Source: Niveibacterium microcysteis
Lineage (GTDB): Bacteria; Pseudomonadota; Gammaproteobacteria; Burkholderiales; Rhodocyclaceae
Length of the DNA: 64,000 bases
Reading direction: 5' to 3'
NCBI RefSeq assembly: GCF_017161445.1
Contig: NZ_CP071060.1
Coordinates: 2,852,001 to 2,916,000, forward strand
In this document: positions 29,071-55,359 of the stretch, piece after piece
How the letters are laid out: each line of letters begins with the position of its first letter
Numbering within the stretch: position 1 is the first letter of the stretch
Notes under the pieces: model-generated
The model's database searches: none
Seen by the model: the letters and a program-made list of their open reading frames with translations, nothing else
What the model was told of the DNA's origin: nothing
Made by a program: the position numbers and the translations under genes

Positions 29071-30381
29071 ATGCATAGCAACGATCTCCTGCAACGTTCA
29101 CTCAACGCCGTCTGGCACCCGTGCACGCAGATGAAGCACCACGAGCGCTTCCCGCTGATTCCGCTCGAACGCGGCGAGGGGCTGTGGCTTTTTGATACCG
29201 AGGGGCGTCGGTACTTCGATGCAGTCAGCTCCTGGTGGGTGAACCTCTTTGGCCATTGCAACCCGCGGATCAACGCCGCGCTGCAACGCCAATTGGGGAC
29301 GCTCGAACATGCCATGTTGGCCGGCTTCACCCACCGGCCGGTCGTAGAGCTCTCGGAACGCCTGCGAGCCCTGACGGGCAACGCGCTGGGGCACGCGTTC
29401 TATGCCTCCGATGGCGCCTCGGCGACCGAGATTGCGCTGAAGATGAGCGCGCACTACTGGCGCAACAGCGGGATGCCGGGCAAGAACCGCTTCCTGAGTC
29501 TTGCCGGCAGCTACCACGGCGAAACCGCCGGCGCGCTGTCGGTGACGGACATTGATCTGTTCCGCGACGCCTACGCGCCGCTCGTACGGCAATCGGCAAC
29601 CGTGCCAAGCCCCGCCAGCGCCGACGCTTCGACCCGCGCACAAGCTGCGCACAGCGCAGCCGAAGCGCTGGATGCCTGGCTCGCCGAACACGCGGATAGC
29701 ACCGCGGCGTTGATTGTCGAACCCCTGGTGCAGTGCGCCACCGGGATGGCCATGTACGACGCTGAATACCTGCGTCGCGCCCGCGCCGCCTGTGATCGCC
29801 ACCGGGTTCATCTGATCGCCGACGAAATCGCAGTGGGCTGCGGTCGCACCGGCACCTTCTTCGCTTGCGAGCAGGGCGGCATCCAGCCGGACTTCCTGTG
29901 CTTGTCGAAAGGCATTTCAGGCGGCTACCTGCCGCTCTCGATCGTGCTGAGTACCGACGAAACGTATCGCGCCTTCTACGATGACGCCACCGTGCGGGGC
30001 TTCCTGCACTCGCACTCCTACACCGGAAACCCGCTGGCCTGCACCGCTGCGCTCGCGACGCTCGATATCTTCGAGAGCGACAAGGTGCTCGCGACAAACC
30101 TCGAGCGCGCCGCCGCACTCACCCGTGCGGCAGCACCACTTCAACAGCATGCCCGAATCCGCAACTTCCGCCGCACCGGCATGATCTGGGCGTTCGACGT
30201 CGACTGCGACGATCCGCAGCTATCGCGCAAGATCTTTGCGGCCGGCCTGTCACACGAAGTGCTGCTTCGCCCGATCGGCCGAACGGTCTACTGGATGCCG
30301 CCCTACATTTTCGACGACGCCGACGCGGCTTTTCTGGTGCAACGCACAGGTGCAGCGATCGACGCCGCGCTGGTGGCCTGA
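29071..30381 (+). CDS. bioA: Adenosylmethionine-8-amino-7-oxononanoate aminotransferase
   Basis: PLP class-III aminotransferase; makes DAPA from KAPA using SAM as amino donor. 436 aa. WHPCTQMKHHERFPLIPL, the SSWWVNLFGHCNP substrate motif, DEIAVGCGRTGTFFACEQ and the PLP lysine in LSKGISGGYLPLS are all present. First gene of bioA-F-H-C-D, with only three bases between bioA and bioF. The promoter must be in 28920-29070; no operator was recognised. Confidence 0.97.
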   Translation: MHSNDLLQRSLNAVWHPCTQMKHHERFPLIPLERGEGLWLFDTEGRRYFDAVSSWWVNLFGHCNPRINAALQRQLGTLEHAMLAGFTHRPVVELSERLRALTGNALGHAFYASDGASATEIALKMSAHYWRNSGMPGKNRFLSLAGSYHGETAGALSVTDIDLFRDAYAPLVRQSATVPSPASADASTRAQAAHSAAEALDAWLAEHADSTAALIVEPLVQCATGMAMYDAEYLRRARAACDRHRVHLIADEIAVGCGRTGTFFACEQGGIQPDFLCLSKGISGGYLPLSIVLSTDETYRAFYDDATVRGFLHSHSYTGNPLACTAALATLDIFESDKVLATNLERAAALTRAAAPLQQHARIRNFRRTGMIWAFDVDCDDPQLSRKIFAAGLSHEVLLRPIGRTVYWMPPYIFDDADAAFLVQRTGAAIDAALVA

Positions 30382-30384
30382 TCC

Positions 30385-31542
30385 ATGGCGATCTGGGAAA
30401 CACTTGACGCAGAATTCGCAGCACTCGATGCGGCTGGGCTGCGCCGGCGACGTCGAACGATCAGCGAACGACATGGCGCTGAGGTCGTCGTCGACGACCG
30501 CCGAGCCGTCAACTTCTGCGCCAATGACTACCTGGGCCTTGCTGACCACCCGGCCCTTGTCGACGCCGCGATTGCCGGCGCGCAACGCTGGGGCATGGGC
30601 GCCGGCGCATCGCACTTGGTGAGTGGGCACTTTTCCGCACACGACGCTGCAGAAAGAAAACTGGCCAATTTCGTTGGCTGCGACGCAGCGCTGCTGTTCT
30701 CCACCGGCTACATGGTCAATAGCGGCATCGCCGCCGCCTTGGTCGGCCGTGGCGACGCGGTGTTCGCTGACCGCCTCAATCACGCCTCGCTGGTTGACGG
30801 CGCCCTGCTCAGTCGCGCCGAGCTTCGGCGCTATCCACACGGCGACGTCGCCGCGCTCGAACAGATGCTTGCCGAAAGCACCGCGCCGCGGAAGCTGATC
30901 CTGACCGACAGCGTATTCAGCATGGATGGCGATATCGCCCCCTTGCCGGCGCTCTTCGAACTCGCCGAGCGCTTTGATGCCTGGCTGGTGGTCGATGACG
31001 CGCATGGCTTTGGCGTGCTCGGCCCCCAGGGCCGCGGCGCCCTGCAGCATTACGGCATCCGCTCGCCGCGCGTACTGTATATCGGCACCCTTGGCAAAGC
31101 GGCCGGCGTTTACGGCGCTTTCGTTGCGGGCGACACACAGGTTGTGGCGTGGCTGATGCAGAAAGCGCGCACCTACATCTTTACGACAGGTGCCCCACCG
31201 CTAGTGGCTGAGACGATCTGCGCTGCGGTGGATCTGATCGAGGCAGGCGACGAGCGACGAGCCCAGGTGGCGCAGCTCATCGCGCGACTGAGCAGCCAGC
31301 TCCGCCACCCGGAACGCCTCATGGCATCCACCACGCCAATCCAGCCTGTGTTGGTGGGTGACAACGAGGCGGCGCTAACGCTCGCCGCGCGTTTGCTTGA
31401 GGAAGGCCTCTGGGTGCCGGCGATTCGCCCGCCCACGGTACCGGCGGGCACCGCGCGACTACGGATATCCTTGTCGGCGGCCCACACCACCGCGCAAGTA
31501 GATGCGCTGGCCGCGGCGATCAACCGCCATCTCGCAGTATGA
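30385..31542 (+). CDS. bioF: 8-amino-7-oxononanoate synthase
   Basis: PLP enzyme that condenses pimeloyl-ACP (or -CoA) with alanine. 385 aa. NFCANDYLGLADHP, GMGAGASHLVSGH, VVDDAHGFGVLGPQGRG, and the PLP lysine in GTLGKAAGVYGAF are present. Ends ATGA-overlapped with bioH. Confidence 0.97.
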   Translation: MAIWETLDAEFAALDAAGLRRRRRTISERHGAEVVVDDRRAVNFCANDYLGLADHPALVDAAIAGAQRWGMGAGASHLVSGHFSAHDAAERKLANFVGCDAALLFSTGYMVNSGIAAALVGRGDAVFADRLNHASLVDGALLSRAELRRYPHGDVAALEQMLAESTAPRKLILTDSVFSMDGDIAPLPALFELAERFDAWLVVDDAHGFGVLGPQGRGALQHYGIRSPRVLYIGTLGKAAGVYGAFVAGDTQVVAWLMQKARTYIFTTGAPPLVAETICAAVDLIEAGDERRAQVAQLIARLSSQLRHPERLMASTTPIQPVLVGDNEAALTLAARLLEEGLWVPAIRPPTVPAGTARLRISLSAAHTTAQVDALAAAINRHLAV

Positions 31543-32255
31543 CGATACGCATGCAAGCCTGGCACGGCTGGGGCTTCGACCCAGCCGCATTCGACCCGCT
31601 GCGTGCCGCCCTGGGTGATGGCTGCGAGCTTGTGACGCCGGCGCTCACCGCGCCTGCTTCCGGCGACTTCAACGCCTGGGTTGCGGAACTGGCCGGACAA
31701 GTGAGCGCCAACGAAGTGCTGCTCGGCTGGTCGCTCGGCGCCATGCTGGCGATGGCCGCCGTAGCAGCCGGCGCGCGGCCGAGGGCTCTGGTGTTGATTG
31801 GCGGCAGCCCGCGTTTCGTCACCTCGGCAGCGTGGCCGCACGGTCTGGATGCCAGCACCGTAACTGCATTCCAGACCGGCATCGCGGCACAGCCGGATCG
31901 TACGATGAAGCGTTTCCTCGCACTCCAAACGCTTGGCGACAGCCAGCGGAGCGCTGGACAGGCGGCGCTCGAACACGCCCTTGAAACCGATCCGGCCAAG
32001 CTGTCGCCCGCACTGTCGGCGCTGATCGGGGCGGACCTGCGGACGCAGGTCCGCCATATCGGCGTACCCGCTTTGTTGCTGCATGGCGAAAACGACGCCC
32101 TGATGCCGATGGCTGCGGCCAACTGGCTTTCGGCGCAGCTGCCGCATGCTCAACTGCAGTTATTTCCACAGTGCGGCCACGCACCGCATGTGACGCACGC
32201 GCGAGGTGTGGCTGAAGCATTGCAGCGTTTTCTCGGGGCCTTGCCGGATGCCTGA
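31539..32255 (+). CDS. bioH: Pimeloyl-ACP methyl ester carboxylesterase
   Basis: Alpha/beta hydrolase that removes the methyl group from pimeloyl-ACP methyl ester, ending the BioC-BioH pimelate route. 238 aa. HGWGFDPAAF oxyanion region, nucleophile Ser in GWSLGA, Asp in HGENDALMP, and His in CGHAPHVTH. Unlike E. coli, where bioH is unlinked, it is inside the bio operon. Its start overlaps bioF by four bases and its end overlaps bioC by eight. Confidence 0.94.
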   Translation: MTIRMQAWHGWGFDPAAFDPLRAALGDGCELVTPALTAPASGDFNAWVAELAGQVSANEVLLGWSLGAMLAMAAVAAGARPRALVLIGGSPRFVTSAAWPHGLDASTVTAFQTGIAAQPDRTMKRFLALQTLGDSQRSAGQAALEHALETDPAKLSPALSALIGADLRTQVRHIGVPALLLHGENDALMPMAAANWLSAQLPHAQLQLFPQCGHAPHVTHARGVAEALQRFLGALPDA

Positions 32256-33033
32256 TTCCCTACCGGTGCCGCCGGCTGATCTGAGGCGGCGCATTCGTGA
32301 GGCCTTTGCAGCCGCCGCCGCCCACTACGACCACCACGCCGAAGTCCAACGTGCGATCGTCGCGGACCTGCTCGCATGGATTGAACTGTCTGCCCCGGCC
32401 CGTTTGCCAACGCTCGACGCCGGTTGCGGCACCGGTTACGCAAGTGCTGCCCTGCGCACCGACGATGCACCGGTGATCGGGCTTGATCTTGCCGACACGA
32501 TGGCGCGCCAAGCGCTCCGGCGTGGCGAGCACGGCATCGCCGGAGATCTGGAATGCCTGCCGTTGCGCGACGGATGCGTTGGCCGCTACTGGTCCAGCCT
32601 CGCCTGGCAATGGTGCGCCAGCGGCGCAGCGGCTGCCGAGGCCGCGCGCGTGCTGGCCTCCGGCGGCGTGCTTCAGGTCGCGACACTCGGGCCCGATACG
32701 CTGCGCGAGTTGCGCGAGGTCTTTGCAGCGATCGACGGCGCCGAACATGTGCGCAGCTTCGAGCCACCCGATGCGGTGCTCGCCGCGCTCCGACACGCCG
32801 GCTTCCGGTCGATACGCTTCAAGCAATGCACGCAAACCGGTTTCGCGCCCGATTTGGCGAGCCTGCTCCGCGACATCCGTGGAGTCGGCGCGCACACGCT
32901 GGGCGACAGCCGCCGTCGCGGCATGCTCGGCCGGCAAGCGTGGCAACGCCTCTGCGACGCGTACGAGGTCCACCGCGAAGCCGCCGGTCTGCCAGCGCGT
33001 TACGATGTTCTGATGTTCGAAGCCATCCGCTAA
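32248..33033 (+). CDS. bioC: Malonyl-ACP O-methyltransferase
   Basis: SAM-dependent methyltransferase that starts pimelate synthesis by methylating malonyl-ACP. 261 aa. SAM motif LDAGCGTGYASAAL (about residues 50-63), then DLADTMARQA and GGVLQVATLGPDTLRELREVF, typical of BioC. ATG at 32248 is chosen over a GTG at 32206 because it lies at the bioH stop and begins the conserved region. 142 bases without a gene separate it from bioD. Confidence 0.93.
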   Translation: MPDSLPVPPADLRRRIREAFAAAAAHYDHHAEVQRAIVADLLAWIELSAPARLPTLDAGCGTGYASAALRTDDAPVIGLDLADTMARQALRRGEHGIAGDLECLPLRDGCVGRYWSSLAWQWCASGAAAAEAARVLASGGVLQVATLGPDTLRELREVFAAIDGAEHVRSFEPPDAVLAALRHAGFRSIRFKQCTQTGFAPDLASLLRDIRGVGAHTLGDSRRRGMLGRQAWQRLCDAYEVHREAAGLPARYDVLMFEAIR

Positions 33034-33175
33034 GAATTTCTGAAGAACTCGGCGAGACCGACGCTGCCCAACAGGCACGACAAAGCGCGCGACACATCGG
33101 GACGGCTCTGGCGCCCGCGAGCACCGACCGAATCCCAGCCGCGAAGAGATCAGCCACGAATTCGGATCTACTCTC

Positions 33176-33847
33176 ATGCACTACTACTTCATCACCGGCA
33201 CGGATACCGAGATTGGAAAGACCTTCGTCACCTGCGCACTACTGCACTCGGCACGTGCAGCCGGGCTCAGCGCCGTCGGCTACAAGCCGATCGCAGCTGG
33301 CGCCGAGGAGATCGACGGCATCTGGTCGAACGAAGACGCGCGGCGCCTGCAAAACGCTTCGTCCCCCGGCTTCGTGCTCGACGAGATCAACCCGCTGTGC
33401 CTGCGCGAACCGGTGGCGCCGCACATTGCAGCCGCGTCGGAGAACGTCGCGCTCGACGTACCGCCGCTGGTAGCGGGATTCGAACGCCTCGCGAAGCGGG
33501 CTGACTGCGTCCTGGTTGAAGGCGTCGGCGGCTTCCGCGTGCCGCTGGACGATCGCCTCGACACCGCCGACCTCGCACTCGCGATGCGTTTGCCGGTGAT
33601 CCTGGTGGTGGGCATGCGGCTGGGCTGCATCAACCACGCACTGCTGACCGCCGAGGCCATTACTGCGCGCGGGCTGCATCTCGCGGGCTGGATCGCGAAC
33701 ACGCTGGCGCCTCGCATGAATCGCTTCGATGAGAACCTGGAAGCGCTCGCCGCGCGCCTGCCGGCACCGTTGCTGGGTGTCGTACCGTTCAGCGCGGCAG
33801 GCCCGCAAAGCGCGGCATCACAGGTAAGCCTGCCCGGCACGGTATAA
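33176..33847 (+). CDS. bioD: Dethiobiotin synthetase
   Basis: ATP-dependent ureido-ring closure of DAPA. 223 aa. P-loop GTDTEIGKT at residues 8-16, substrate Lys in GYKPIAAG, VEGVGGFRVPLD and GCINHALLTAEAI. Last gene of the bio operon; bioB is not in the window. Ribosome site before the ATG is weak. Confidence 0.95.
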   Translation: MHYYFITGTDTEIGKTFVTCALLHSARAAGLSAVGYKPIAAGAEEIDGIWSNEDARRLQNASSPGFVLDEINPLCLREPVAPHIAAASENVALDVPPLVAGFERLAKRADCVLVEGVGGFRVPLDDRLDTADLALAMRLPVILVVGMRLGCINHALLTAEAITARGLHLAGWIANTLAPRMNRFDENLEALAARLPAPLLGVVPFSAAGPQSAASQVSLPGTV

Positions 33848-36486: not shown

Positions 36487-38820
36487 TCACCGGGAGACTG
36501 ACGACTCCGCGTGCCAGTATCGGCGCGCCACATCGCGCCACCTCGTTACACTGACACCGTCAGGCGCGAATCGCATCTGTATCGCGCCGTCGCGATCCGA
36601 TCGAAGATCCTCGGCGCCGGCTTCACGGTAACGCTCAGTAACTTCCGCATGCGGATGACCGAAGCGACTGCGGTAGCCGACGGCGTACAACACCCAACGT
36701 GGCGACAGGGTGTGCACGAAATCGTCGCCCGACGAACTGCGGCTGCCGTGATGCGGTGCGATGACCACATCGACGGGGCCGAGCAGCCCGGCTTCGATCA
36801 ACTCACGTTCCGAGGCAAGTTCAATATCAGCTGCGAGCAAGGCCGTGTGCACACCGCTGCGCACACGAATCACGCAGCTGTTGCGGTTACCGCCCAAGGC
36901 CCGCCCCGGTGCGGGGTGCAGCACTTCGAAAACAACCCCGTCCCACGCCCATTCATCGCCGCGGGCACAGGGCCTGAAACCGGCGCCACGCAAGAGATGC
37001 GAGGTCGGAAGCGATCCCATCAGCCAATCCGCCGTGATCGAGCCAAGCACCGCTGCAGCACCTCCGGCGTGATCACTGTCGTCATGGCTCACCACCACGC
37101 CCGAGAGACGATTGACACCCTCACCACGCAGGTAAGGCACAACAATCCGCTGGCCCGCATCGCTGCTCGTGCCAAAACGCGGCCCGGTATCAAACACGAG
37201 GTCGTGCGCCGCAGTGCGCACGTGGACCGCCAGGCCTTGGCCCACATCCAGCATCGTCATCTCGAAACTGCCCTTCGGTGGCCGTGCTGGGTGCCAACAC
37301 AGCAAAGACAGCAGGATCACCGCTGCCGCGCCACGCCCGGGTGCCCCACGTGGCGCCAGCAGCCACACGGCGGCCACCGACGCTGCGAGGATCAGAGGCA
37401 AGGGTGCCGCCGCCTGCTGCCAGACAGCCCATTGAGGCCCTGAAAGCCACGCCAGCACCTCGGCAAGTTGCCCGAACAACCACGCCGCAAGGTGGAGCAG
37501 CGGCGCCCAGTCGAGCACCACAAACAAGAACTCCAACGGCAGCAGTACGAAGGTCACCAAGGGTACGGCCACCAGGTTGGCGACCGGCGCCACCCACGAC
37601 ATCTGCCCGGTGAGCGCCAGCAAGGCCGGCAACATGCCAAGCCCGATCGCCCACTGCGCAGCAAGCCAGCGGCGCCACGCCGGACTCGACTGCTCATGCG
37701 GGCTCGCCGCCCACAACAGCAGCGCGACCGCGATGAAGGACAACCACGTTCCCTTGCTCAGCACACACCAGGGGTCCCACAGCAGCACAGAAACCAGCGC
37801 CGCAGCGAGCGCAAGGACCGGCCGCACCGCTCGGCCACCAAAGTTCGCGAACGCAACGACCGCAAGCATCACCAGCGATCGCTGCGCTGGCACGGCAGCC
37901 CCGGCGAGCGCCACATAAGCGGTGGCCGCCAACAAGCCGAACAGGGCCCCGGCGGATTGGGCGGGTAGCCGCAGGGCCAGCCACGGCACGCGCCGCCAAA
38001 GCGCCGCGAGCGCCGACCCTGCAACCAGCGCCCAGATCGTGACGTGCAGACCGGAAATGCTGATCAGATGGGTGATGCCGCTGCGCGAAAACAAGGTCCA
38101 TTGCTCGCTGCTCACACCATCCTGGTCACCGATCGCCAGCGCCACCAGTACCGCACGCCAGGGCGAGTCCGGCAAGGCACGCTCGAAGCGATCGCGGATC
38201 GCCTGCCGCCATTGCTCCACGATGATCATCGGGGAGCGTGTCGTATCCGGCAGTCGCTCAGCATCGCGGGACTCGCGCACGTAGCCACTCGCACCCAGGC
38301 GCTGCGACAGCATTTGCGCCTCGCGATCACTTCCGTGCGGGTTCAGGCTGCCGTGCGGACGCTTGAGGCGGACGGTCAGCGCCCACGCTTCGCCGGCCCG
38401 CAGGTCGGGCACCACCTCGTGCGCATTGCGGTACCAACTCAGTTGCAGACGCGACGGCACCCCAACGGGCGGATCGAGGATTTCAAACACAAATCCGATG
38501 CCGTGATCCACCCGGCGCGGCATCTCGACGATTCGACCCCGTACCGCAATATCCTGCCCCTCAAGTGAGGCCGCAAGGCGGTCTTGCAAGCGGACGGTGG
38601 CGCGCAGCGCGCCCGTACCGTAGCCGAACGTCAGGGCAGCGACGCAGACCAGCGCCCAGGCCAAACGGCGGTCAAGCCGGCCGGACAGGCTGAACAGCGA
38701 CAGCATCGCGCCAAGGCCGACAAGCCCGTACGCGATGTATGTTGGCGGCAGCGTCTGCTGGCTCTGCAGCAGCAACGTGCCCGCGAGCAGGCCAACCGCA
38801 AGGGGAAGGATCAGCGCCAA
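36487..38820 (-). CDS. comEC: ComEC/Rec2 family DNA internalisation channel
   Basis: Inner-membrane channel that passes single-stranded DNA into the cytoplasm during natural transformation. 777 aa. N-terminal DUF4131 with membrane helices, an OB-like periplasmic domain (VRGRIVEMPRRVDHGIGF), the competence domain GITHLISISGLHVTIWALVAG, and a C-terminal metallo-beta-lactamase-like domain (about 505-770) with TMLDVGQGLAVHV, SHDDSDHAGG and HHGSRSSS. The start is a TTG at 38820; the upstream frame is closed by a stop and the ATG at 38834 is out of frame. It lies 96 bases after the Wzz-recombinase fusion gene and in the same direction. Confidence 0.93.
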   Translation of the reverse strand: MALILPLAVGLLAGTLLLQSQQTLPPTYIAYGLVGLGAMLSLFSLSGRLDRRLAWALVCVAALTFGYGTGALRATVRLQDRLAASLEGQDIAVRGRIVEMPRRVDHGIGFVFEILDPPVGVPSRLQLSWYRNAHEVVPDLRAGEAWALTVRLKRPHGSLNPHGSDREAQMLSQRLGASGYVRESRDAERLPDTTRSPMIIVEQWRQAIRDRFERALPDSPWRAVLVALAIGDQDGVSSEQWTLFSRSGITHLISISGLHVTIWALVAGSALAALWRRVPWLALRLPAQSAGALFGLLAATAYVALAGAAVPAQRSLVMLAVVAFANFGGRAVRPVLALAAALVSVLLWDPWCVLSKGTWLSFIAVALLLWAASPHEQSSPAWRRWLAAQWAIGLGMLPALLALTGQMSWVAPVANLVAVPLVTFVLLPLEFLFVVLDWAPLLHLAAWLFGQLAEVLAWLSGPQWAVWQQAAAPLPLILAASVAAVWLLAPRGAPGRGAAAVILLSLLCWHPARPPKGSFEMTMLDVGQGLAVHVRTAAHDLVFDTGPRFGTSSDAGQRIVVPYLRGEGVNRLSGVVVSHDDSDHAGGAAAVLGSITADWLMGSLPTSHLLRGAGFRPCARGDEWAWDGVVFEVLHPAPGRALGGNRNSCVIRVRSGVHTALLAADIELASERELIEAGLLGPVDVVIAPHHGSRSSSGDDFVHTLSPRWVLYAVGYRSRFGHPHAEVTERYREAGAEDLRSDRDGAIQMRFAPDGVSVTRWRDVARRYWHAESSVSR

Positions 38821-38916: not shown

Positions 38917-40911
38917 TCAGTGGACAGGCGGGTAGAACCAATCAACCTGTTCGGCCGCCAAGCGTTGGCCAGTCGGCGCCATCGCACTGTAGGCCGCCAG
39001 GCGCTCAGCAGGCACAGCACCAACGCGAAGCGCCAGATCGCTGAACCGCACGCCCTGTCGCGCCAGATGACTGAGGTAGCTGTGGCGCAAAGCGTCCGCC
39101 GTGACCTCCGCCGGTGCCTGCACCCCGGCATCATGGGCCAGGCAGAGCAACAGGCTATCCAGCGCAGCCCGGTCGAGCGGTGCGCCGGCGGCATTACGCA
39201 GCAAGGGCTGGTCCGGAGCCTCGCTACGCAAATCGGCCAATGCATCGGCGGTCAAACCGATCCGCCTCTGCGACGCTCCGCCAACGCGTAGGGCTGCCTG
39301 CTCGAGATCCACATCGCCCGCCCGCAAAATGAGCAATTCCGAGGGGTCGACACCAGCGAACAGGCAGCGAAGAGCAACCCGTGACGCGCCCGATGCAGCG
39401 GCCAGCAGGGCACTGGATTCCGAGTCCGACAGTTCCCGAGGCAGCGCAAGCGGTGCCGGCAAAAGATCCGGCCGAGCCGCTTGCAACTGCGGTGGCTGCG
39501 CGTTCGGGCCGATCTGCACTGCGCTCGCGCCACCACCCAGCCAGACTGGGCTAACAACAACCGCTGGCTGTGGCCCGCGCGATTGCAGGTAGTCGACAAG
39601 CCACACCGCGAACAGCGCCGCCAGCAGCGCGGCCGCCAAGACAATCGCTGCGTCGCGCGCATAGCGGGGGCGCCAGGTATCGTGTGGCGTACTCGCCCAT
39701 TCGATCACGGACAGCGACGGCATGCGCGCCCGCTCACTCGCCTCAAGCTTGACCAGGCGTTCGAGCGAACTACGATGTAGCGCCTCAAGCTGATCCAGTT
39801 CGTCCTGCATCGCCTTGTACTCGCTCACGCGAATCGCGAAGGACTGCACCACGCCCCGTGCCCCGGCCATTTGCTGACGGAGCCGGTTGGCCGCCTCCTG
39901 GGCGGTGGCGAGCTCCTCCTGTGCTTCGGCGATCGAGGCGTCGCGGCTGGCGCTACGTTGGGCCTTGAGCTGCGCTTCAAGTTCGGCCAGGCGCGCCCGC
40001 AGCGCCCGTGCATTCGGGTCGATGGCCATGTAATCGGCGGTGTAGTTGCGCTCCATGTCGCGCAAGGCCTCACGCGTTTGCGATGCGCGTTGCTCGATCG
40101 AAGCGAGCGTCGGATTGTCGCGGGCGCGCTCGATCGACTTGCCGGCGGCGGCCGACTCACGCAGCGAACGCAGACGCGCTTCGGCCGCCACCACGCGGTC
40201 GTTGGCGACGTTGAGCGAAGTGCTCATGTCCTTCACGCCACTGAGCAGCGCGTTTTCCTGATGGTTCGCCGAAACGATGTTGTGCTGGGCCTGGAAGGCT
40301 TCCACTGCGGCACGCTTCTCCGCGATGCGTGCGCTCAGGCGATCGAGTTCCTCGCGCGACTGCGTAAGTGTCTGCGCCGCAGTCTTCTGGAACTGCTCGG
40401 CGATCTCGTCGCGGTACACACCGATCAATCCATTCACAAGGCGTGCGAGCGCGTCCGGGTGACGGCCCACCGCAGACAGCTCGACGATACGGCTGTCGGC
40501 AACGGCCTCGGCCGACAAAATGCGCTGGATTGCATCGGCAGACTCCAGGCCGTCCATCTCGACGCCCGCCCGATGCAACTGGTCACGCACGCGCTCGATC
40601 AGCGGGCGGCCAGTCAGGCGCTGCACTTCGTCCGCCAGGCCAGGCGCCGGCGGCGGGGCCGCATTGCTCGGCTGCTGCGATGAGGATACTGGGGGCAGGC
40701 TGGCGGCAGGCGTGATCTGGACACGTGCCTCGGCGCGATACTCCGCCGGACGCGAAAAGTCGTAGATCAACCCCAGCACGCTGCAGGCAATGAACACGGC
40801 GCCAAAAACCCGCCAGCGGCGCGAGCGCCGCACCTGAAGATCCGGCCCCAACGCAGGCGGTGCAGAAAACACGCCCGCCCCACGCATCGCCGCTCCGGCA
40901 AATGAACTCAT
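38917..40911 (-). CDS. Wzz/GumC-type polysaccharide co-polymerase fused to a degenerate tyrosine-recombinase-like domain
   Basis: 664 aa from the ATG at 40911 (GGGGAG upstream; a TTG at 40956 is an alternative). Residues 33-50: first transmembrane helix. Residues 55-420: periplasmic Wzz-like part with long coiled coils (about 180-220, 235-300, 300-395) and the GumC-type stretch IEWASTPHDTWRPRYARD before the second helix (about 420-440). Residues 490-655 align by eye with the XerC/D catalytic domain: PRELSDSESSALL, GVDPSELLILRAGDVDLEQAALRV, then TADALRHSYLSHLARQGVRFSDL. Against XerD, Arg148 is replaced by Asp, His244 by Asp and His270 by Ala; Arg247 and the Tyr nucleophile position are kept. 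Catalysis is unlikely; DNA binding is possible. No polysaccharide genes are near. Normal partners at this position in co-polymerases are BY-kinase domains. Confidence 0.7.
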   Translation of the reverse strand: MSSFAGAAMRGAGVFSAPPALGPDLQVRRSRRWRVFGAVFIACSVLGLIYDFSRPAEYRAEARVQITPAASLPPVSSSQQPSNAAPPPAPGLADEVQRLTGRPLIERVRDQLHRAGVEMDGLESADAIQRILSAEAVADSRIVELSAVGRHPDALARLVNGLIGVYRDEIAEQFQKTAAQTLTQSREELDRLSARIAEKRAAVEAFQAQHNIVSANHQENALLSGVKDMSTSLNVANDRVVAAEARLRSLRESAAAGKSIERARDNPTLASIEQRASQTREALRDMERNYTADYMAIDPNARALRARLAELEAQLKAQRSASRDASIAEAQEELATAQEAANRLRQQMAGARGVVQSFAIRVSEYKAMQDELDQLEALHRSSLERLVKLEASERARMPSLSVIEWASTPHDTWRPRYARDAAIVLAAALLAALFAVWLVDYLQSRGPQPAVVVSPVWLGGGASAVQIGPNAQPPQLQAARPDLLPAPLALPRELSDSESSALLAAASGASRVALRCLFAGVDPSELLILRAGDVDLEQAALRVGGASQRRIGLTADALADLRSEAPDQPLLRNAAGAPLDRAALDSLLLCLAHDAGVQAPAEVTADALRHSYLSHLARQGVRFSDLALRVGAVPAERLAAYSAMAPTGQRLAAEQVDWFYPPVH

Positions 40912-41152
40912 GTTGTCTCCCCGCCTACCGGTCCCGGCGACAACGCCTGTCCGCAACCCCCGCGTCGTAGGCAGACCGGTTTTGCCTTAATCCAACAGCA
41001 TGGACCCGATTTCAGGCGATTGCCACCGCAGCAACACCCGGGATACGCGCCGTGTTGAACACGTTGCGTCAGCTGTCACGCTTTTGATCTGCGTCGGGGT
41101 CCTTGCCTGCAAGCGCATGCTCGAATCGTGACACCCGGTGGAAGAACAGATC

Positions 41153-47474: not shown

Positions 47475-48572
47475 TCAACTGGCGCGGCGCACCGACTGCC
47501 TGAGCCGCGCCACCACCCGCTGGGCTACTTCGTTGAGTGGTGATACCTCGTCCACCGCACCGATCTGCGCGGCCTCACGCGGCATGCCGTACACCACGCA
47601 GCTTTCCTGATCCTGGCCGATGTTCCAGCAGCCAGCTTTCTTCATTGCAAGCATGCCCTGTGCACCGTCCTTGCCCATGCCGGTCAGCATCACACCAACC
47701 CCGTTCGCGCCGACATGCTTGGCGGCCGAGTGAAACAGCACGTCCACCGAAGGGCGATGACGATTCACCGGCTCGGCCTTCGATAGCTCGCAGCAATATA
47801 GCCCGCCACTGCGTTTGACGAGCAGATGCGAATGCCCGGGGGCCAGGTAAGCATGGCCGGGCAGGATCTTCTCGCCGTCCTCGGCTTCCTTGACGCGCAC
47901 CTTGCAGAGGCCGTCCAGCCGCTTGGCGAACGAGCCGGTGAACATCTCCGGCATATGCTGGACGATCAGGATGCCGGGCATCTGCTCGGGGAAACGGGTC
48001 AGTACCTCCTTGATCGCTTCGGTACCGCCGGTCGACGCCCCGATCAATACTAGGCGGTCACGCAAGGTATTGCCATCCAGCGCCGTGGGCGTTGCGCCCC
48101 CCGTGGCGCTCGCGGCGGTGGCAGCCGTTGAAGCCGCTGCCGCCGGCTGCGAGTACTTCGCCGGTGAGCGCAGGCGCGCCTGATGCGCAGCGCGAATCTT
48201 GTCGCAGATCTCGTCCGCGTAAGGGCGGATTCCCTGCGCCGAATTGAGCTTCGGCTTGGTGATGAAGTCGACGGCGCCGAGCTCCAGCGCGCGGAAGGTC
48301 ACATCCGAGCCCCGCTCGGTCAGCGTCGAGATCATCACTACGGGGGTCGGCCGCAGCCGCATCAGCTTGTCGAGAAACTCCAAACCATCCATGCGCGGCA
48401 TTTCGATGTCCAGCGTCACCACATCGGGGTTGAGTTGCTTGATCATCTCGCGCGCAACGATCGGGTCAGTGGCCGTGCCGACGACTTCGATATCCGGTGC
48501 CTGGTTGATCAATTCGGAAAGCACCGAACGCATCACTGCCGAGTCGTCCACGATGAGTACGCGGATTGCCAT
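47475..48572 (-). CDS. cheB: Chemotaxis protein-glutamate methylesterase CheB
   Basis: Removes methyl groups from and deamidates chemoreceptors. 365 aa: receiver domain (residues 1-125; [14 protein letters not shown], phospho-Asp in [13 protein letters not shown]), an Ala-rich linker, then methylesterase with Ser in [16 protein letters not shown], His in [16 protein letters not shown], and Asp in [11 protein letters not shown]. It follows cheD by 12 bases. Confidence 0.97.
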
Positions 48573-48584
48573 GTCTGCTTCGCC

Positions 48585-49217
48585 TTAATCGAACAGTTCC
48601 ACATCACCGCTATGTCGCGGTGCATGGGTGAGCCGCTCGCGGTAATCGCGTTCGCGGTCGATCACGGTTTCGTTCCGCAGATCGACCAGCTTCTTCACCA
48701 TCACGCGCCCGCTCACCGGAAAGAAATACACCTTGCGCGCATACACATCGAGCAGGTCTTGCGCGATCACCGGTATCCGCTCAAGTTTCAAATAGTCGAG
48801 CACAAAAGCCGAATTGCGGTCGCCCACACTTGATCCGGTCAGCGCCGCCATCACGCGGCCACCGCCGAATACCTTCGCTTCGAGGCTGGATCGCCGCGCG
48901 CCCATGCCTAGCAGCCGGTTGATCAACACTTCCATCGCGAATGCGCCGTAGCGGGCGGATTCGGATAGCACACCCCGCTCACCGCTATCGGGCAGCATGA
49001 AGTGGTTGAGCCCGCCGATGCGCTTGTCACGGTCCCGTATGCAGGCCGCAACGCAGGAACCCAGCACCGTCACGATCGCCATGTCGCGCGTCGTGGCGTA
49101 GTACTCGCCGGGCAACACCTTCACCGCATCGCATGCGAAGTTGCGATCGTAGTAGGCGTTGTCCGCCAGGTGTGGATCGAGAGGGTCGTAGTCAGCCCCG
49201 CTGGTCGGTGCGGGCAT
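48585..49217 (-). CDS. cheD: Chemoreceptor glutamine deamidase CheD
   Basis: Deamidates receptor glutamines. 210 aa. Catalytic Cys and His in VTVLGSCVAACIRDRDKRIGGLNHFMLP (positions about 57-85), and KVFGGGRVMAALTG. The protein ends GDVELFD, a tail almost the same as the GDIELF end of the transducer encoded upstream (58564-59727); see findings. The start overlaps cheR by 26 bases. Confidence 0.94.
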   Translation of the reverse strand: MPAPTSGADYDPLDPHLADNAYYDRNFACDAVKVLPGEYYATTRDMAIVTVLGSCVAACIRDRDKRIGGLNHFMLPDSGERGVLSESARYGAFAMEVLINRLLGMGARRSSLEAKVFGGGRVMAALTGSSVGDRNSAFVLDYLKLERIPVIAQDLLDVYARKVYFFPVSGRVMVKKLVDLRNETVIDRERDYRERLTHAPRHSGDVELFD

Positions 49218-50250
49218 ACACCGTTCTCCCGAGCGAGCGGAACAGATCGGCCGCGTGCATGAAGTTCTCGGAGTGGCCCGCGAACATCAGGCCCTCGGGC
49301 CGCAGCAAAGGCACGAAGCGCTTGAGGATCGTGTATTGCGTCGGCTTGTCGAAGTAGATCATCACATTGCGGCAGAAGATCGCATCAAACGGCCCCTGCA
49401 CCGGCCACGAGGGCTCAAGCAGGTTGAGGCGGCGGAAGCTGAGCAGGCGCTGCAACTCGGGCCGCACACGCACCTTGCCCGCCTGCTCGCCGGTGCCTTT
49501 GAGGAAGAACTTCTGCAGCCGGTCGCGCTGCAGGCGATCGACACGGTCCATGCCGTACATGCCCAGTTCGCCATGCCGGAGCACGTTGGTGTCCAGATCG
49601 GTCGCAATGATCTGTACCGGAGGCGAAAGCGTGTTGTAGGCCTCGCAGGCGGTGATCGCGAGCGAGTATGGCTCTTCGCCGGTCGATGCCGCACAGCACC
49701 AGATCTTGACCGTACGCTTGGGGTCGAAGCTGCGCAGCAGGTTCGCCAGCGTGTCGAAGTGGTGCGCTTCGCGGAAGAACGAGGTGAGGTTGGTCGTCAG
49801 CGCATTGACGAATTCTTCCCATTCTTTCGGATCGTTGCTGCGCTCCAGGTTATCCAGGTAATCGGAGAATCGGTGTTCGCCGCGCGCACGCAAACGGCGA
49901 GCAAGGCGGCTGTAGACCATGTCCTGCTTGATCGGTGACAGTGCGATGCCGGCGTGCTTGTAGATGAGCGCCCGGACCCGTTCGAAATCCGCCGGCGTGA
50001 AGGCGAATTCGCGCCCCGACACATCGATCTTGCCAAGCGAATCCACGATCTTCTGGCGTGCAGCCGCGCCCGCAGGCAGCGCGGGGGCCGTTGTGCCACG
50101 CAGCGGCGCGGGCGCTGGCCGCGCAGGTGACAGCGGGGCTAGGGGTTTGCGCGTCGTGGTGCCGAGGGGCGGCCGCGCCGGCGCGGCCGTTGCCCGTGGC
50201 GGCACCAGCGGCGCACGCGGAGGAATCTTCGAATCAGGCTTGTCGCTCAT
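49192..50250 (-). CDS. cheR: Chemotaxis protein methyltransferase CheR
   Basis: SAM-dependent methylation of chemoreceptor glutamates. 352 aa, about 70 longer than usual. Residues 1-70 are a Pro/Ala/Arg-rich tail of low complexity; the CheR N-domain starts near 85 (FTPADFERVRALIYKHAGIAL), with VNALTTNLTSFFREAHHF, the SAM site WCCAASTGEEPYSLA and IFCRNVMIYFDKPTQ. The N-terminal extension may be a flexible tether; the start ATG at 50250 fits the operon spacing, but a later start cannot be excluded. Confidence 0.94.
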   Translation of the reverse strand: MSDKPDSKIPPRAPLVPPRATAAPARPPLGTTTRKPLAPLSPARPAPAPLRGTTAPALPAGAAARQKIVDSLGKIDVSGREFAFTPADFERVRALIYKHAGIALSPIKQDMVYSRLARRLRARGEHRFSDYLDNLERSNDPKEWEEFVNALTTNLTSFFREAHHFDTLANLLRSFDPKRTVKIWCCAASTGEEPYSLAITACEAYNTLSPPVQIIATDLDTNVLRHGELGMYGMDRVDRLQRDRLQKFFLKGTGEQAGKVRVRPELQRLLSFRRLNLLEPSWPVQGPFDAIFCRNVMIYFDKPTQYTILKRFVPLLRPEGLMFAGHSENFMHAADLFRSLGRTVYARTDQRG

Positions 50251-50277
50251 GTCTGCTGCCTTCCCGCCATCTGCTGC

Positions 50278-52539
50278 CTAGAACCCGCGCCGGCCGCGTG
50301 CAGCGGGATGGTGTGTCGCGGTGGAAAGGCGGAAGGTCGCCACGGCCGCGGTAAGGGTATGCGCCTGGTCCTCCAGGCTTTCGGCCGCTGCGGCCGCTTG
50401 CTCGACCAAGGCCGCGTTCTGCTGCGTCACTTCGTCCATCTGCGTCACCGCCGACGCGACCTGATCAATCCCTTCTGCCTGTTCGCGGCTCGAGTTCGCG
50501 ATCTCGTTCACCAACTGCGTCAGCTGGCGGAAGTTGGCGACCATCTCTTCGATCGTCTCCCCCGCCTCGCGCACCTGCTGCACGCCGCCGCGCACCTTGA
50601 CCTCGCTCTCTTCGATCAGGCCCTTGATCTCCTTGGCTGCCTGCGCACTGCGGTGGGCAAGGTTGCGCACCTCGGACGCCACCACCGCGAAGCCCCTGCC
50701 CTGCTCGCCGGCCCGCGCCGCTTCCACAGCGGCGTTGAGCGCGAGGATGTTGGTCTGGAACGCAATCGAGTCGATCACGCTGATGATCTCTGCAATCTTC
50801 GAGGCACTCTTCTGGATTGCGTCCATCGTGCCGACGACCTGGCGCACCATCTCGCCGCCACGCTGCGTGACGCCGTCGGACTGACGCGCCAGCGCACTCG
50901 CATCGGCCGCTGTCTGGGCATTGTTGCGAACGGTGGAGTTCAGTTGCTCCATGCTCGCCGCGGTTTCCTCCAGGCTCGATGCCTGTTCTTCAGTGCGTGA
51001 CGACAGATCCGCATTGCCAGCAGCAATCTCCTTCGCCGCCGTGTTCACCGCTTCCGTAGCCTGCTGGATCGTGCCCATCAGGTCACGCAAACGCGCAACG
51101 GTGGTGTTGGCATCGTCGCGCAGCTGGCCGAACACGCCGCGATAGTCGCCTTCGACGCTGCGTGTCAGGTCGCCCTGCGCGATCGACTGCAGAATCGATG
51201 CAATTGCGCCCAGGCCGGCCGAGGTCGTTTCGACCATGCGGTTGAGGTTTTCGGAGAGCTGCAGGGCGAAGCCTGTCTTGCCCTCAAGCGCCAGCCGGTG
51301 GCTGAAGTCGCCATTTGCGGTGCCCTCGACCAGGGTCGCCACCTCGGCTTCGATCGCGAGCTCCGCAGTGCGGTCCAGCCACTCCACTGCAGTGCCCAGA
51401 CGCACGCCACGGGGGTCGACCACCGGGTTCACTGTCAGCGTGAACGTGCGGCTGCCGATCGACACCACGGCCTTGTGCGTGCCCTGCAGCCTGGCCAGCA
51501 ACTGCTGCTGGTGCGCAGGGTTCTTGTGGAACTGGTCGATCGACGTGCCGATCAGCTTCGAGACATCAAAGCTGCCAAAGGCCTTCCGCATGTCCTCCGT
51601 AGCGTCGCTGAAGGTGCGCTCCAGCGACTTGTTGAGGTAGATGATCCGATTGTCGCGGTCGGCGATCATCACGTTGGTGGCAACGTTGTCGAGGCCGGTC
51701 TTGATGCGCAGGCTTTCTTCGACCACGCGGTTAATCTCCGCGATGTCGAAGCCGTGGCGAATCAACATCGATTCGACACCCTGCACTAGCCGCCCGATCT
51801 CATCGTTGCGCGCCACGGTCAGCCGATCCTTCAGATTGCCCTGCGCCACACGCTCAACCGTGGTGACCGCCGCAGCCAGTCGGCGCTGCAGGTTGTGCGC
51901 CACACTCCTGCCGAGCCCCGCGAGCACCACGAGCATTGCCCCAAGGGGCAGCAGAACATCCGGTGCCCAATGTCCGCCGCCCGCGCGCCATACGGCGGCA
52001 AGCGCCAGCAGCGCCGATAGCGCACAGCCCAGCCAGACTTTGCTGACGAGCGGCACGTCGGCCCACTTCGCCAACAGCGCGGGAATACCGTTGCCGACCA
52101 CCTCGCCGTTGCGCACGACGGCGCTGGCTCGCTGTGCGCGCAGCTGTGCGTAGAAGGTCTCAGCTGCCTGAATCTGCTCGCGGCTCGCCTTGCGGCGAAC
52201 CGACATGTAGCCGGTGATCTGATCGCCCTCGCGCAGCGGCGTCGCATGGGCTTCCACCCAGTAGTAATCGCCGTTCTTGCAGCGGTTCTTCACCATGCCG
52301 ATCCAGGGACGCCCAGCCTTGAGGCACTTCCACAAATCGTCGAAGGCCTCCGGCGGCATGTCCGGATGACGCACGATGTTGTGCGGCTGCCCCATCAGTT
52401 CGGCCTCGGTGAAGCCGCTGATGTCGATGAAGTCGCGGTTGATGTAGGTGATGCGGCCCTTCGTATCGGTCTTCGACACGATCATCGTGTCGACACTGAG
52501 CTCGACCTCGCGGTCGGTCACCGGCGTGTTGATGCGCAT
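50278..52539 (-). CDS. Aer-like methyl-accepting chemotaxis protein with two PAS domains
   Basis: 753 aa. Residues 10-110: cytoplasmic PAS domain with the Aer-type core [37 protein letters not shown], which binds FAD in relatives and senses redox or oxygen. Two closely spaced hydrophobic segments (about 165-185, 192-210) form a membrane hairpin, then HAMP (about 213-262), a second PAS (about 282-385, [20 protein letters not shown]) and the signalling domain with hairpin tip [41 protein letters not shown] (described by its position near 590-630). No periplasmic domain. It is a neighbour and relative of the next gene upstream. Confidence 0.92.
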
Positions 52540-52587
52540 GAAGGCTGTCTCCCCTTTTTGCCGTATCTCGTTGGCCGCTTACGCGGC

Positions 52588-55359
52588 TCAGAATTCCTGC
52601 CAGTCGGACTCAGCGCTTGCCGGTTGCTTGCGCGGCTTCGGGACGCCCTTTGGCGCCACCGGCGTACGAGCGATTGCCGGGGTGCGCACCGATGCAGCAT
52701 GGGCCGGCGCCTGCGCAATGGTGATTGGCGCCTGATAGCCGGCGCCAGCGTCAAGCCGGAAGGCGGCCACCGAACTCGCCAGCATCCTCGCCTGTTCCTC
52801 CAGGCTCTCGGCCGCGGCCGCCGCCTGCTCCACCAGCGCCGCGTTCTGCTGCGTCACTTCATCCATCTGGCCCACGGCGGCGGCGACCTGATCGATACCG
52901 GTGGATTGCTCCCGGCTTGCCTGGGAGATGTCCGTCACCAACCGGGCGAGTTCGGCAAAGTTGCTCACCATCTCGTTGATCGTGGCGCCCGCATCGCGCA
53001 CCTCGCGCGCGCCTTCGCCAACCTTGTCCACACTGTCGGCGATCAGGCCCTTGATCTCCTTCGCGGCTTGCGCGCTGCGCTGCGCAAGGTTGCGCACTTC
53101 CGAGGCAACCACCGCGAAACCGCGCCCCTGCTCACCCGCCCGCGCGGCTTCTACCGCGGCGTTGAGCGCAAGGATATTGGTCTGGAACGCGATCGAATCG
53201 ATCACGCCGATGATGTCTGCGATCTTGGTTGCGCTGGACTGGATCGCATCCATCGTCGTGACGATCTGGCGCACCTTGGCGCCGCCTTCCTGCGCCACCG
53301 CGTTCGACTGCGACGCGAGGCGGTTCGCCTGCGCTGCGCTCTCCGCGTTCTGACGCACCGTGGCGTTCAGTTCTTCCATGCTGGAGGCGGTCTCTTCAAG
53401 GCTGGAAGCCTGTTCCTCGGTGCGACCGGAGAGATCCGAATTGCCGGCGGCGATTTCCTGCGCGGCGGTATTCACGGCATCACTCGCCTCGCGGATCTGG
53501 CTCAGTACCGCGTTCAGGCGATCGACCGTCTGATTCGTATCCTCCTTGAGGCGGCCGAACATGCCCTGGTAGTCGTTCTGGATGCGCACCGTAAGGTCGC
53601 CTTGCGAGATCGCGTTGAGCACACCCGCCACATCTTCAAGACCGCCGGAAACGACGCCGAGCAGCTGGTTCATCGCCTCCGCGAGTTGCCGGAAGAAACC
53701 CTCCTTGTCTGCCACCGTCAGGCGCTGTGCGAAGTCGCCAGCGACTGCGGCACGCAACAGCGCAGCGAGCTCCTCCTCGGCCCTGACCTCGGCCGTACGG
53801 TCGAGCCATTCGATCACCGTGCCGAGCCGGCGACCGGTGCTGTCCATGATCGGGTTGGCAGTCAGCCGGAAGCTGAGCGGGCCGACCTTGATGTTGGCGA
53901 CATGCTTGCCGCGCAGCGCACCGAGCACGTTGCGCTGGTGCGAGGGGTTACGGTGAAACTCATCGAAGTTGCGGCCAACGATCTCCTGCGCCCGGAACTG
54001 CGGCAACACCTTGCGCAGCTCGTTCTCGACGCCGCCCAGCATCGTCACGACGGACTCGTTGCAGTAGAGAATCTTGCCGTCGTTGTCTGCGAGCATCACG
54101 TTGGTGGAGGTCTTGTCCAGCGCGTTGCGGATACGCAAGTTCTCGGCTGCAAGCGCCTGGTCGCTCTCGATCTTCTGGCGCAACTGCGCTCGCATGGTGT
54201 TGAGCGTTGCGGCGATCTCGCCAAACTCGTCGCGCGACGAAACGTCGACGTTGTTCGATAGATCAGCCTGCGCAATACGCCGCGCGCCGTTCTGGATCAT
54301 GTCGATTGCACGCAACATGCCGGACCGGAAGCCAAGGAACAAGTACAGCGCCAGCAGCACCGCCAAAGCGGCCAGCACGAAGGTGGTGTTGCGCTCGCGC
54401 TCAAGGCGAGCGACGCGAATATCGATCGCGTCGTCAAACGCCTTGGCCGCCGCGTCCATCACTGCGTAACCGGCCTGCAGGGCCTCGGTCGACAAGGCCC
54501 AAAGCGCGTCCGGGCTCTCATCCACCTTATCGGCCGAGAGCAGACGCCGCACCTCCTGCCGGAACACGTCTGCCTTGGTTCTGAAGGCCTTGACGCTTGG
54601 CTCCACATCGCGTGAGACCGTACCCGTGTCATCGAACTTCGCCGCCTTCTCGATAGAGGCCTGCATCACCGAGAGACTTTGATCGGATAGCGCGAGCATC
54701 GTTTCCAGTTCGACGCGGTCACTCACCGTCACCTGCTTGGCCAGCACAGCCGAGACCGAGCGCGCTCTCGCCCGACCGAGCGCTTCCACGATGTCCGGCG
54801 CGCGATCGGTAAAGATTGTCATCAGGTAGTAGGTCGAGGCCTCTGGATCCAGCGTGGCGTTCGTGTTGTCGGCGATCAGCGTCATGAACGCCTTGATCTC
54901 ACCGATCAGCTCGGTATGCAGTTTCACGCTATCCGCCGCAGACACCGTGATCGCCTTGGCGCGCACATCCGCCCAGTGCGCCTTGAGCTTGCCCCAGGCA
55001 TCGTCGAGCCCGTACTGCGGGCCTTCGTGTGCAATCACCGCATCCGCTGCCTTGATCGCCGCTTCAACCTTGTCGGCGGCGTCCTTGAGCTTGGGCCGGG
55101 CGCTTTCATTGCCACCGATCAGCTGGCGCGCCTGACCGCGGTGCACCTGCACGCCCTCCATCATCTGGCGAGCCGGCAGGAAGTAGTGCGCCGTAAGCGA
55201 CTCGGTGCGCGCGAAGTGCAGATCCGCCTCGATGCGATGATCCACCTGCCAGACGAGGAATCCGAGCGCGCACAGCACGATCACGCCGATCAGCGCGAAC
55301 TTGCGCGGCACATTCAGCCGGTTCATCAACGCGAGAGAGGGTTTGAGCAGGGCTTGCAT
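52588..55359 (-). CDS. Methyl-accepting chemotaxis protein with PAS and pentapeptide-like tail
   Basis: 923 aa. First transmembrane helix about 20-38, a periplasmic all-helical sensor of nearly 290 residues, second helix about 325-345, HAMP, a cytoplasmic PAS ([18 protein letters not shown]) and a full MA signalling domain with [22 protein letters not shown]. After the signalling domain comes a flexible Ala/Pro-rich linker and the last residues SDWQEF, which fit the xWxxF pattern of the E. coli CheR/CheB tether NWETF. The PAS-to-MA part is closely similar to the downstream transducer, which indicates a local duplication. Ligand unknown. Confidence 0.92.

What the first reader, a model, noticed from the sequence alone, without database searches (positions are those of the whole stretch)
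38917..40911. Polysaccharide co-polymerase fused to a dead XerC/D-like recombinase domain
One protein holds a two-helix Wzz/GumC periplasmic coiled-coil domain and, in the cytoplasm, about 165 residues that follow the tyrosine-recombinase catalytic fold (38977-39444). Compared with XerD from memory, the PxxLSxxE start, GxxxSEL-x-L-x-x-x-D-I/V-D, LRH and the final Tyr spacing (nine residues after the His270 position) agree. The catalytic Arg148, Lys, His244 and His270 are lost. In BY-kinase co-polymerases this place is taken by a kinase. A membrane-anchored, probably non-cutting DNA-binding domain on such a protein is, to my knowledge, not described.
Basis: partly seen in the sequence, partly recalled or inferred. 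Interest (0 to 1): 0.8.

Follow-up and report, generated by a model that had tools for sequence, protein, structure and literature searches.

The report
Sugar-chain regulator with dead recombinase tail
A membrane protein built like those that control how bacteria make and export long sugar chains carries, where its relatives have a tyrosine kinase, a DNA-recombinase domain that has lost its cutting residues and reversed its charge, so it probably grips proteins rather than DNA.

The parts
38917..40911 (-). whole gene, 664 residues, PCP-pseudorecombinase fusion
   Evidence: single open frame; 119 of 120 listed family members full length
40916..40922 (-). ribosome-binding-site-like GGGGAGA upstream of ATG 40911
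   Evidence: read from the sequence
40753..40845 (-). residues 23-53, first long helix, holds membrane helix 1 (hydropathy peak from about residue 34)
   Evidence: AlphaFold model; hydropathy
39664..40752 (-). residues 54-416, periplasmic PCP part with long coiled-coil helices
39583..39663 (-). residues 417-443, membrane helix 2
   Evidence: AlphaFold helix; hydropathy
39448..39582 (-). residues 444-488, flexible Pro/Ala-rich linker
   Evidence: pLDDT under 50 at 447-468 and 470-483
38920..39447 (-). residues 489-664, dead tyrosine-recombinase catalytic domain
39265..39267 (-). Arg549, equivalent of XerD Arg177, kept 120 of 120
39085..39087 (-). Arg609, equivalent of catalytic Arg247, kept 117 of 120
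38989..38991 (-). Tyr641, equivalent of nucleophile Tyr279, kept 120 of 120 (26 of 28 in the locus set)

Best explanation
An orphan inner-membrane polysaccharide co-polymerase of the Wzc (PCP-2) build in which the cytoplasmic tyrosine kinase is replaced by a tyrosine-recombinase catalytic domain that cannot cut DNA and most likely does not bind it. Shown by computation: architecture, fold, loss of four of six catalytic residues, reversal of charge, a single clade, purifying selection. Inferred: the domain is a protein-interaction or oligomerisation module under the membrane. Recombinase catalytic domains pack head to tail into rings (recalled), and in Wzc the kinase domains drive octamer assembly; here the pseudo-recombinase would set PCP assembly by binding itself or a partner, without phosphorylation, as the pseudokinase EcpK is proposed to do for the PCP EpsV. 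The likely process is export or length control of an exopolysaccharide.
For: Wzc-like part with two flanking membrane helices. Xer fold. Acidic in 120 of 120. dN/dS of the domain 0.08-0.36 in 8 of 8 pairs. Family-specific invariant residues R-E at the domain start, D594 and Q619 in 120 of 120. Family rows on one side of a 100/100 branch; distances of the two parts correlate, r 0.86. TIGR03007 above cut-off in 23 of 25 carriers; order sample 9 of 10 against 99 of 389. Precedents: Wzc kinase-driven assembly (PMC12881504, passages); EcpK scaffold (PMC12004946, abstract).
Against: No conserved or polysaccharide-type neighbourhood. The TIGR03007 excess is not significant among same-family genomes of 4.0 Mb or more (12 of 13 against 45 of 60, p 0.16), and relatedness was not corrected for. 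No oligomer or partner was modelled. The C-domain evolves faster than the PCP part in 8 of 8 pairs.
Confidence: 0.5

Rival explanations
1. One reading: a membrane-anchored DNA-binding protein that ties a chromosomal site to the envelope, like dead recombinases that became repressors but fixed in the membrane.
For: The fold is a DNA-binding fold; Arg247 and Arg177 equivalents are kept; the dead recombinase MrpR binds DNA (PMC10516654, passages).
Against: Acidic in 120 of 120; 9 of 12 conserved basic columns lost; no core-binding domain.
Confidence: 0.1
2. A Wzc-shaped scaffold whose job has nothing to do with polysaccharide.
For: Orphan gene with no recurring neighbour family in more than 6 of 41 loci and no polysaccharide locus next door in the window.
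Against: Wzc and KpsE structural matches; TIGR03007 in 23 of 25 carriers.
Confidence: 0.25
3. The recombinase domain is a passive spacer or a decaying relic.
For: It evolves faster than the PCP part in 8 of 8 pairs; a PCP-only relative without it exists in L061.
Against: dN/dS 0.08-0.36; invariant residues; kept in 119 of 120 listed members (the fragment P0102 also keeps part of it).
Confidence: 0.1
4. A hidden catalytic activity that uses the kept Tyr and Arg, on DNA or another phosphoester.
For: Tyr279 equivalent in 120 of 120 and Arg247 equivalent in 117 of 120.
Against: Arg148, Lys172, His244 and His270 equivalents lost; Tyr missing in 2 of 28 locus sequences; MrpR keeps its Tyr too and shows no recombination (PMC10516654, passages).
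Confidence: 0.05

Closest known systems
Wzc and other PCP-2 co-polymerases with a fused BY-kinase
   Different: No kinase hit; a recombinase domain stands in its place.
XrtA-system chain-length determinant (TIGR03007)
   Same: Best NCBIfam match of the PCP part; present as a separate gene in 23 of 25 carrier genomes.
   Different: 38.3 bits against a cut-off of 278.85; covers only the PCP part of this protein.
EcpK/EpsV of Myxococcus: PCP-2 with a stand-alone pseudokinase
   Same: A non-catalytic cytoplasmic partner proposed to guide PCP assembly without phosphorylation (PMC12004946, abstract).
   Different: There a dead kinase as a separate protein; here a dead recombinase fused to the PCP.
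XerA/XerC/XerD tyrosine recombinases
   Same: Catalytic-domain fold and sequence profile; Arg247, Arg177 and Tyr279 equivalents.
   Different: No core-binding domain, four catalytic residues lost, acidic, membrane-anchored.
MrpR/YopR and SroF, recombinase-fold phage regulators
   Same: Recombinase fold; MrpR has lost catalysis and keeps the Tyr (PMC10516654, passages); MrpR, YopR and SroF appear in the structural lists.
   Different: MrpR is a DNA-binding repressor with its core-binding domain; this one lacks that domain and is acidic.

Membership tests
PCP-2 co-polymerase (Wzc type) | two membrane helices flanking a long helical periplasmic part | tested here: met
   AlphaFold and hydropathy; Wzc match over 21-444
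PCP-2 co-polymerase (Wzc type) | cytoplasmic BY-kinase fused (PCP-2a) | tested here: not met
   no kinase family hit; C-domain is a recombinase
PCP-2 co-polymerase (Wzc type) | gene in a polysaccharide synthesis locus | tested here: not met
   window neighbours are comEC, K+ channel, lolCD, biotin and chemotaxis genes; no recurring neighbours elsewhere
PCP-2 co-polymerase (Wzc type) | ring-shaped oligomer; effect on polysaccharide | not testable with these tools
   needs biochemistry and genetics
TIGR03007 XrtA chain-length determinant | score above the curated cut-off | tested here: not met
   38.3 against 278.85 bits
tyrosine recombinase | catalytic-domain fold | tested here: met
tyrosine recombinase | catalytic set Arg, Lys, His, Arg, His, Tyr | tested here: not met
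   in P0001 only Arg247 and Tyr279 kept; no member of 120 has Lys172; at most 3 of the other 5 kept
tyrosine recombinase | N-terminal core-binding domain | tested here: not met
   a membrane helix and a disordered linker precede the domain
dead-recombinase DNA-binding regulator (MrpR type) | binds DNA | tested here: inconclusive
   indirect evidence against: acidic 120 of 120, 9 of 12 basic columns lost; not measured

The most novel reading that the evidence does not exclude
A DNA-recombinase domain has left DNA altogether and become the assembly switch of a polysaccharide export machine: its head-to-tail ring-forming ability takes the place of the kinase ring, and the kept Tyr641 (with Arg609) is the on/off point, possibly as a target of a stand-alone tyrosine kinase of an XrtA-type pathway in the same cells.
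Probability: 0.15. Interest if true: 0.9.

Novelty: new variant of a known kind. Interest (0 to 1): 0.72.

Why it matters
PCP proteins set how bacteria assemble and export polysaccharide, and the cytoplasmic control known so far is a tyrosine kinase or a pseudokinase. A family in which a former recombinase sits in that place would show that the control domain can be exchanged, and would be a bacterial case of a recombinase fold re-used, it seems, for protein rather than DNA contacts. Carriers include Zoogloea, Accumulibacter and Thauera, which are known from wastewater flocs and granules (recalled), where matrix polysaccharide matters in practice. Source databases name members and their pieces both 'integrase' and 'exopolysaccharide biosynthesis', so annotation is misleading.

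Tried and rejected
Frameshift or chance fusion: rejected (119 of 120 full length; dN/dS). Link with ComEC: comEC adjoins the gene in the window and in 2 of 28 other loci, L024 and L027, which are the same contig. Of the neighbours, 20 were scanned against Pfam, 2 of them without a hit. For L064-L067 only open frames were listed. Free-standing dead domain: the first 15 hits look like pieces of this family; I read 12 of the 15. Two start in the linker and one inside the domain, most on short contigs, so a free-standing copy is not strictly excluded. TIGR03007 link: reported with its size-matched failure. Position relative to the replication terminus: not tested. Foldseek 'viral' library and multimer models: not run.

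Paper searches listed no work on such a fusion: 0 papers; 12 of 12 listed; 0; 12 of 12; 12 of 43; 12 of 102; 0; 10 of 30. Listings show titles and abstract starts only; preprints and most subscription papers are not held.

XerD residue numbers, the head-to-tail ring packing of recombinases and the ecology of the sludge genera are recalled, not from a call.

Full report
Observation. The gene at 38917-40911 lies on the minus strand and encodes 664 residues, with ATG at 40911 and GGGGAGA at 40916-40922. NCBIfam finds the XrtA-system chain-length determinant over residues 29-372 (E 4.6e-10) and XerA/XerD over about 489-623 (E 6e-8 and 2e-6), each far below the model's own cut-off. Pfam sees both only below its cut-offs, so routine annotation can miss this protein. 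The window lies in a 4.85 Mb genome in two contigs; an 86% homologue sits on a contig titled uncultured Uliginosibacterium sp..

A real family. One search found 170 proteins and listed 120 (the window's own included); 119 are 643-713 residues long. In 199 genomes of the same GTDB family, 13 carry the full-length protein (E below 1e-200); in an order sample 10 of 399; in a class sample 5 of 321, four of them outside the order. These samples overlap in the window's own genome and G071. Six GTDB families are represented (f1, f6, f16, f106, f142, f218). The distribution is patchy but wide. A genome-contig scan gave 24 loci, many with titles such as Accumulibacter, Thauera, Zoogloea, Aromatoleum, Azonexus and Propionivibrio.

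Dead and acidic. Against the genome's own XerD, of 120 members Arg148 is kept in 1, Lys172 in 0 (the hairpin is shorter in all 120), His244 in 5, Arg247 in 117, His270 in 4 and Tyr279 in 120. In a second set of 28 sequences (27 loci and the window) Tyr is kept in 26 and Arg247 in 28. Of the five residues other than Lys172, 109 members keep two, 9 keep three and 2 keep one. The domain has median pI 5.14 and net charge -6, with pI below 7 in 120 of 120; 96 XerC/D-like relatives have median pI 9.74 and net charge +6, one of them below 7. Of 12 columns that are Lys or Arg in at least 60% of those relatives, 9 are basic in at most 4% of the family and 3 stay basic (the 168, 177 and 247 equivalents). 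The core-binding domain, the other half of a recombinase's DNA clamp, is absent. This speaks against DNA binding, though binding was not measured.

Not a relic. In 8 of 8 close pairs the C-domain has dN/dS 0.08-0.36; the PCP part is lower in each, 0.03-0.18. Family-specific residues appear: R-E at the domain start, D594 and Q619 in 120 of 120, and Arg or Lys at 622 in 120 of 120. In a tree of 25 family members and 23 recombinases the family lies on one side of a 100/100 branch of length 1.74, and over 7140 pairs the distances of the two parts correlate with r 0.86. This fits one old fusion followed by joint inheritance.

Context. In the window the gene precedes comEC on the same strand, 96 bases away; a K+ channel gene and lolDC lie on the other side. 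The comEC neighbour recurs in only one other genome (2 of 28 loci, same contig). Over 41 loci no neighbour family recurs in more than 6. Of 20 neighbours scanned, hits include UvrC, GST, phosphoglycerate mutase, transporters and regulators; the only polysaccharide-like ones are a heparinase/VanZ protein at L034 and a family-3 glycoside hydrolase at L028. Guilt by association is therefore not available.

Co-occurrence. The separate chain-length determinant TIGR03007 is present above cut-off in 12 of 13 carriers of the same family, 7 of 8 elsewhere in the order and 4 of 4 in other orders: 23 of 25. The two without are G105 (1240 contigs; a match below cut-off) and G297 (340 contigs, 87% complete). 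Non-carriers have it in 81 of 186 (family), 99 of 389 (order) and 85 of 316 (class). One-sided Fisher p is 6e-4 for the family and 5e-5 for the order, but 0.16 among same-family genomes of 4.0 Mb or more (12 of 13 against 45 of 60). Relatedness is not corrected for. I take this as modest support for a role in the same kind of cell-surface programme.

How it probably works. In Wzc, oligomerisation of the cytoplasmic kinase domains, triggered by dephosphorylation, is proposed to drive assembly with the outer-membrane channel (PMC12881504, passages). In Myxococcus the dead kinase EcpK is proposed to act as a scaffold for the PCP EpsV without phosphorylation (PMC12004946, abstract; passages). Here a dead recombinase sits in the kinase's place on a flexible tether. 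The economical reading is the same logic with another domain: a non-catalytic contact module that sets the assembly state of the PCP. Ring formation through the recombinase interface and a switch role for Tyr641 are bold but testable extensions. MrpR, a dead recombinase repressor, also keeps its tyrosine, and replacing it made that protein temperature-sensitive (PMC10516654, passages); a structural role for Tyr641 is the sober alternative.

Novelty. Eight searches of the paper library listed no PCP-recombinase fusion (some listings were capped). Dead recombinases as DNA-binding repressors and dead kinases beside PCPs are known; a dead recombinase as the cytoplasmic domain of a PCP is, as far as I could see, not. 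I file it as a new variant of a known kind.

Noticed in passing
L061:12022-13032 (G207); G114:C34:17258-18064: A short PCP relative of this family (336 aa in L061) with no recombinase domain; in L061 it lies about 2.1 kb downstream of the full-length gene, in G114 it occurs without a full-length copy above E 1e-200.
   Followed up: partly
window 36487-38820 (-): comEC/Rec2, the DNA-uptake channel gene, directly downstream of the fusion gene; conserved only in the 86% sister genome among 28 loci.
   Followed up: yes
L036:6187-6609 (+): An ExbD/TolR-type gene directly upstream of the family gene in this contig.
   Followed up: no
window 29071-33847 (+): Biotin genes bioA, bioF, a bioH-like gene and bioD in one run, followed by a DUF2863 gene.
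   Followed up: no
window 47475-55359 (-): Chemotaxis genes cheB, cheD, cheR and two receptor genes with PAS and HAMP domains.
   Followed up: no
L048 and L050 (family genes): Two divergent members have lost the otherwise kept tyrosine; L050 also has LRD instead of LRH.
   Followed up: no
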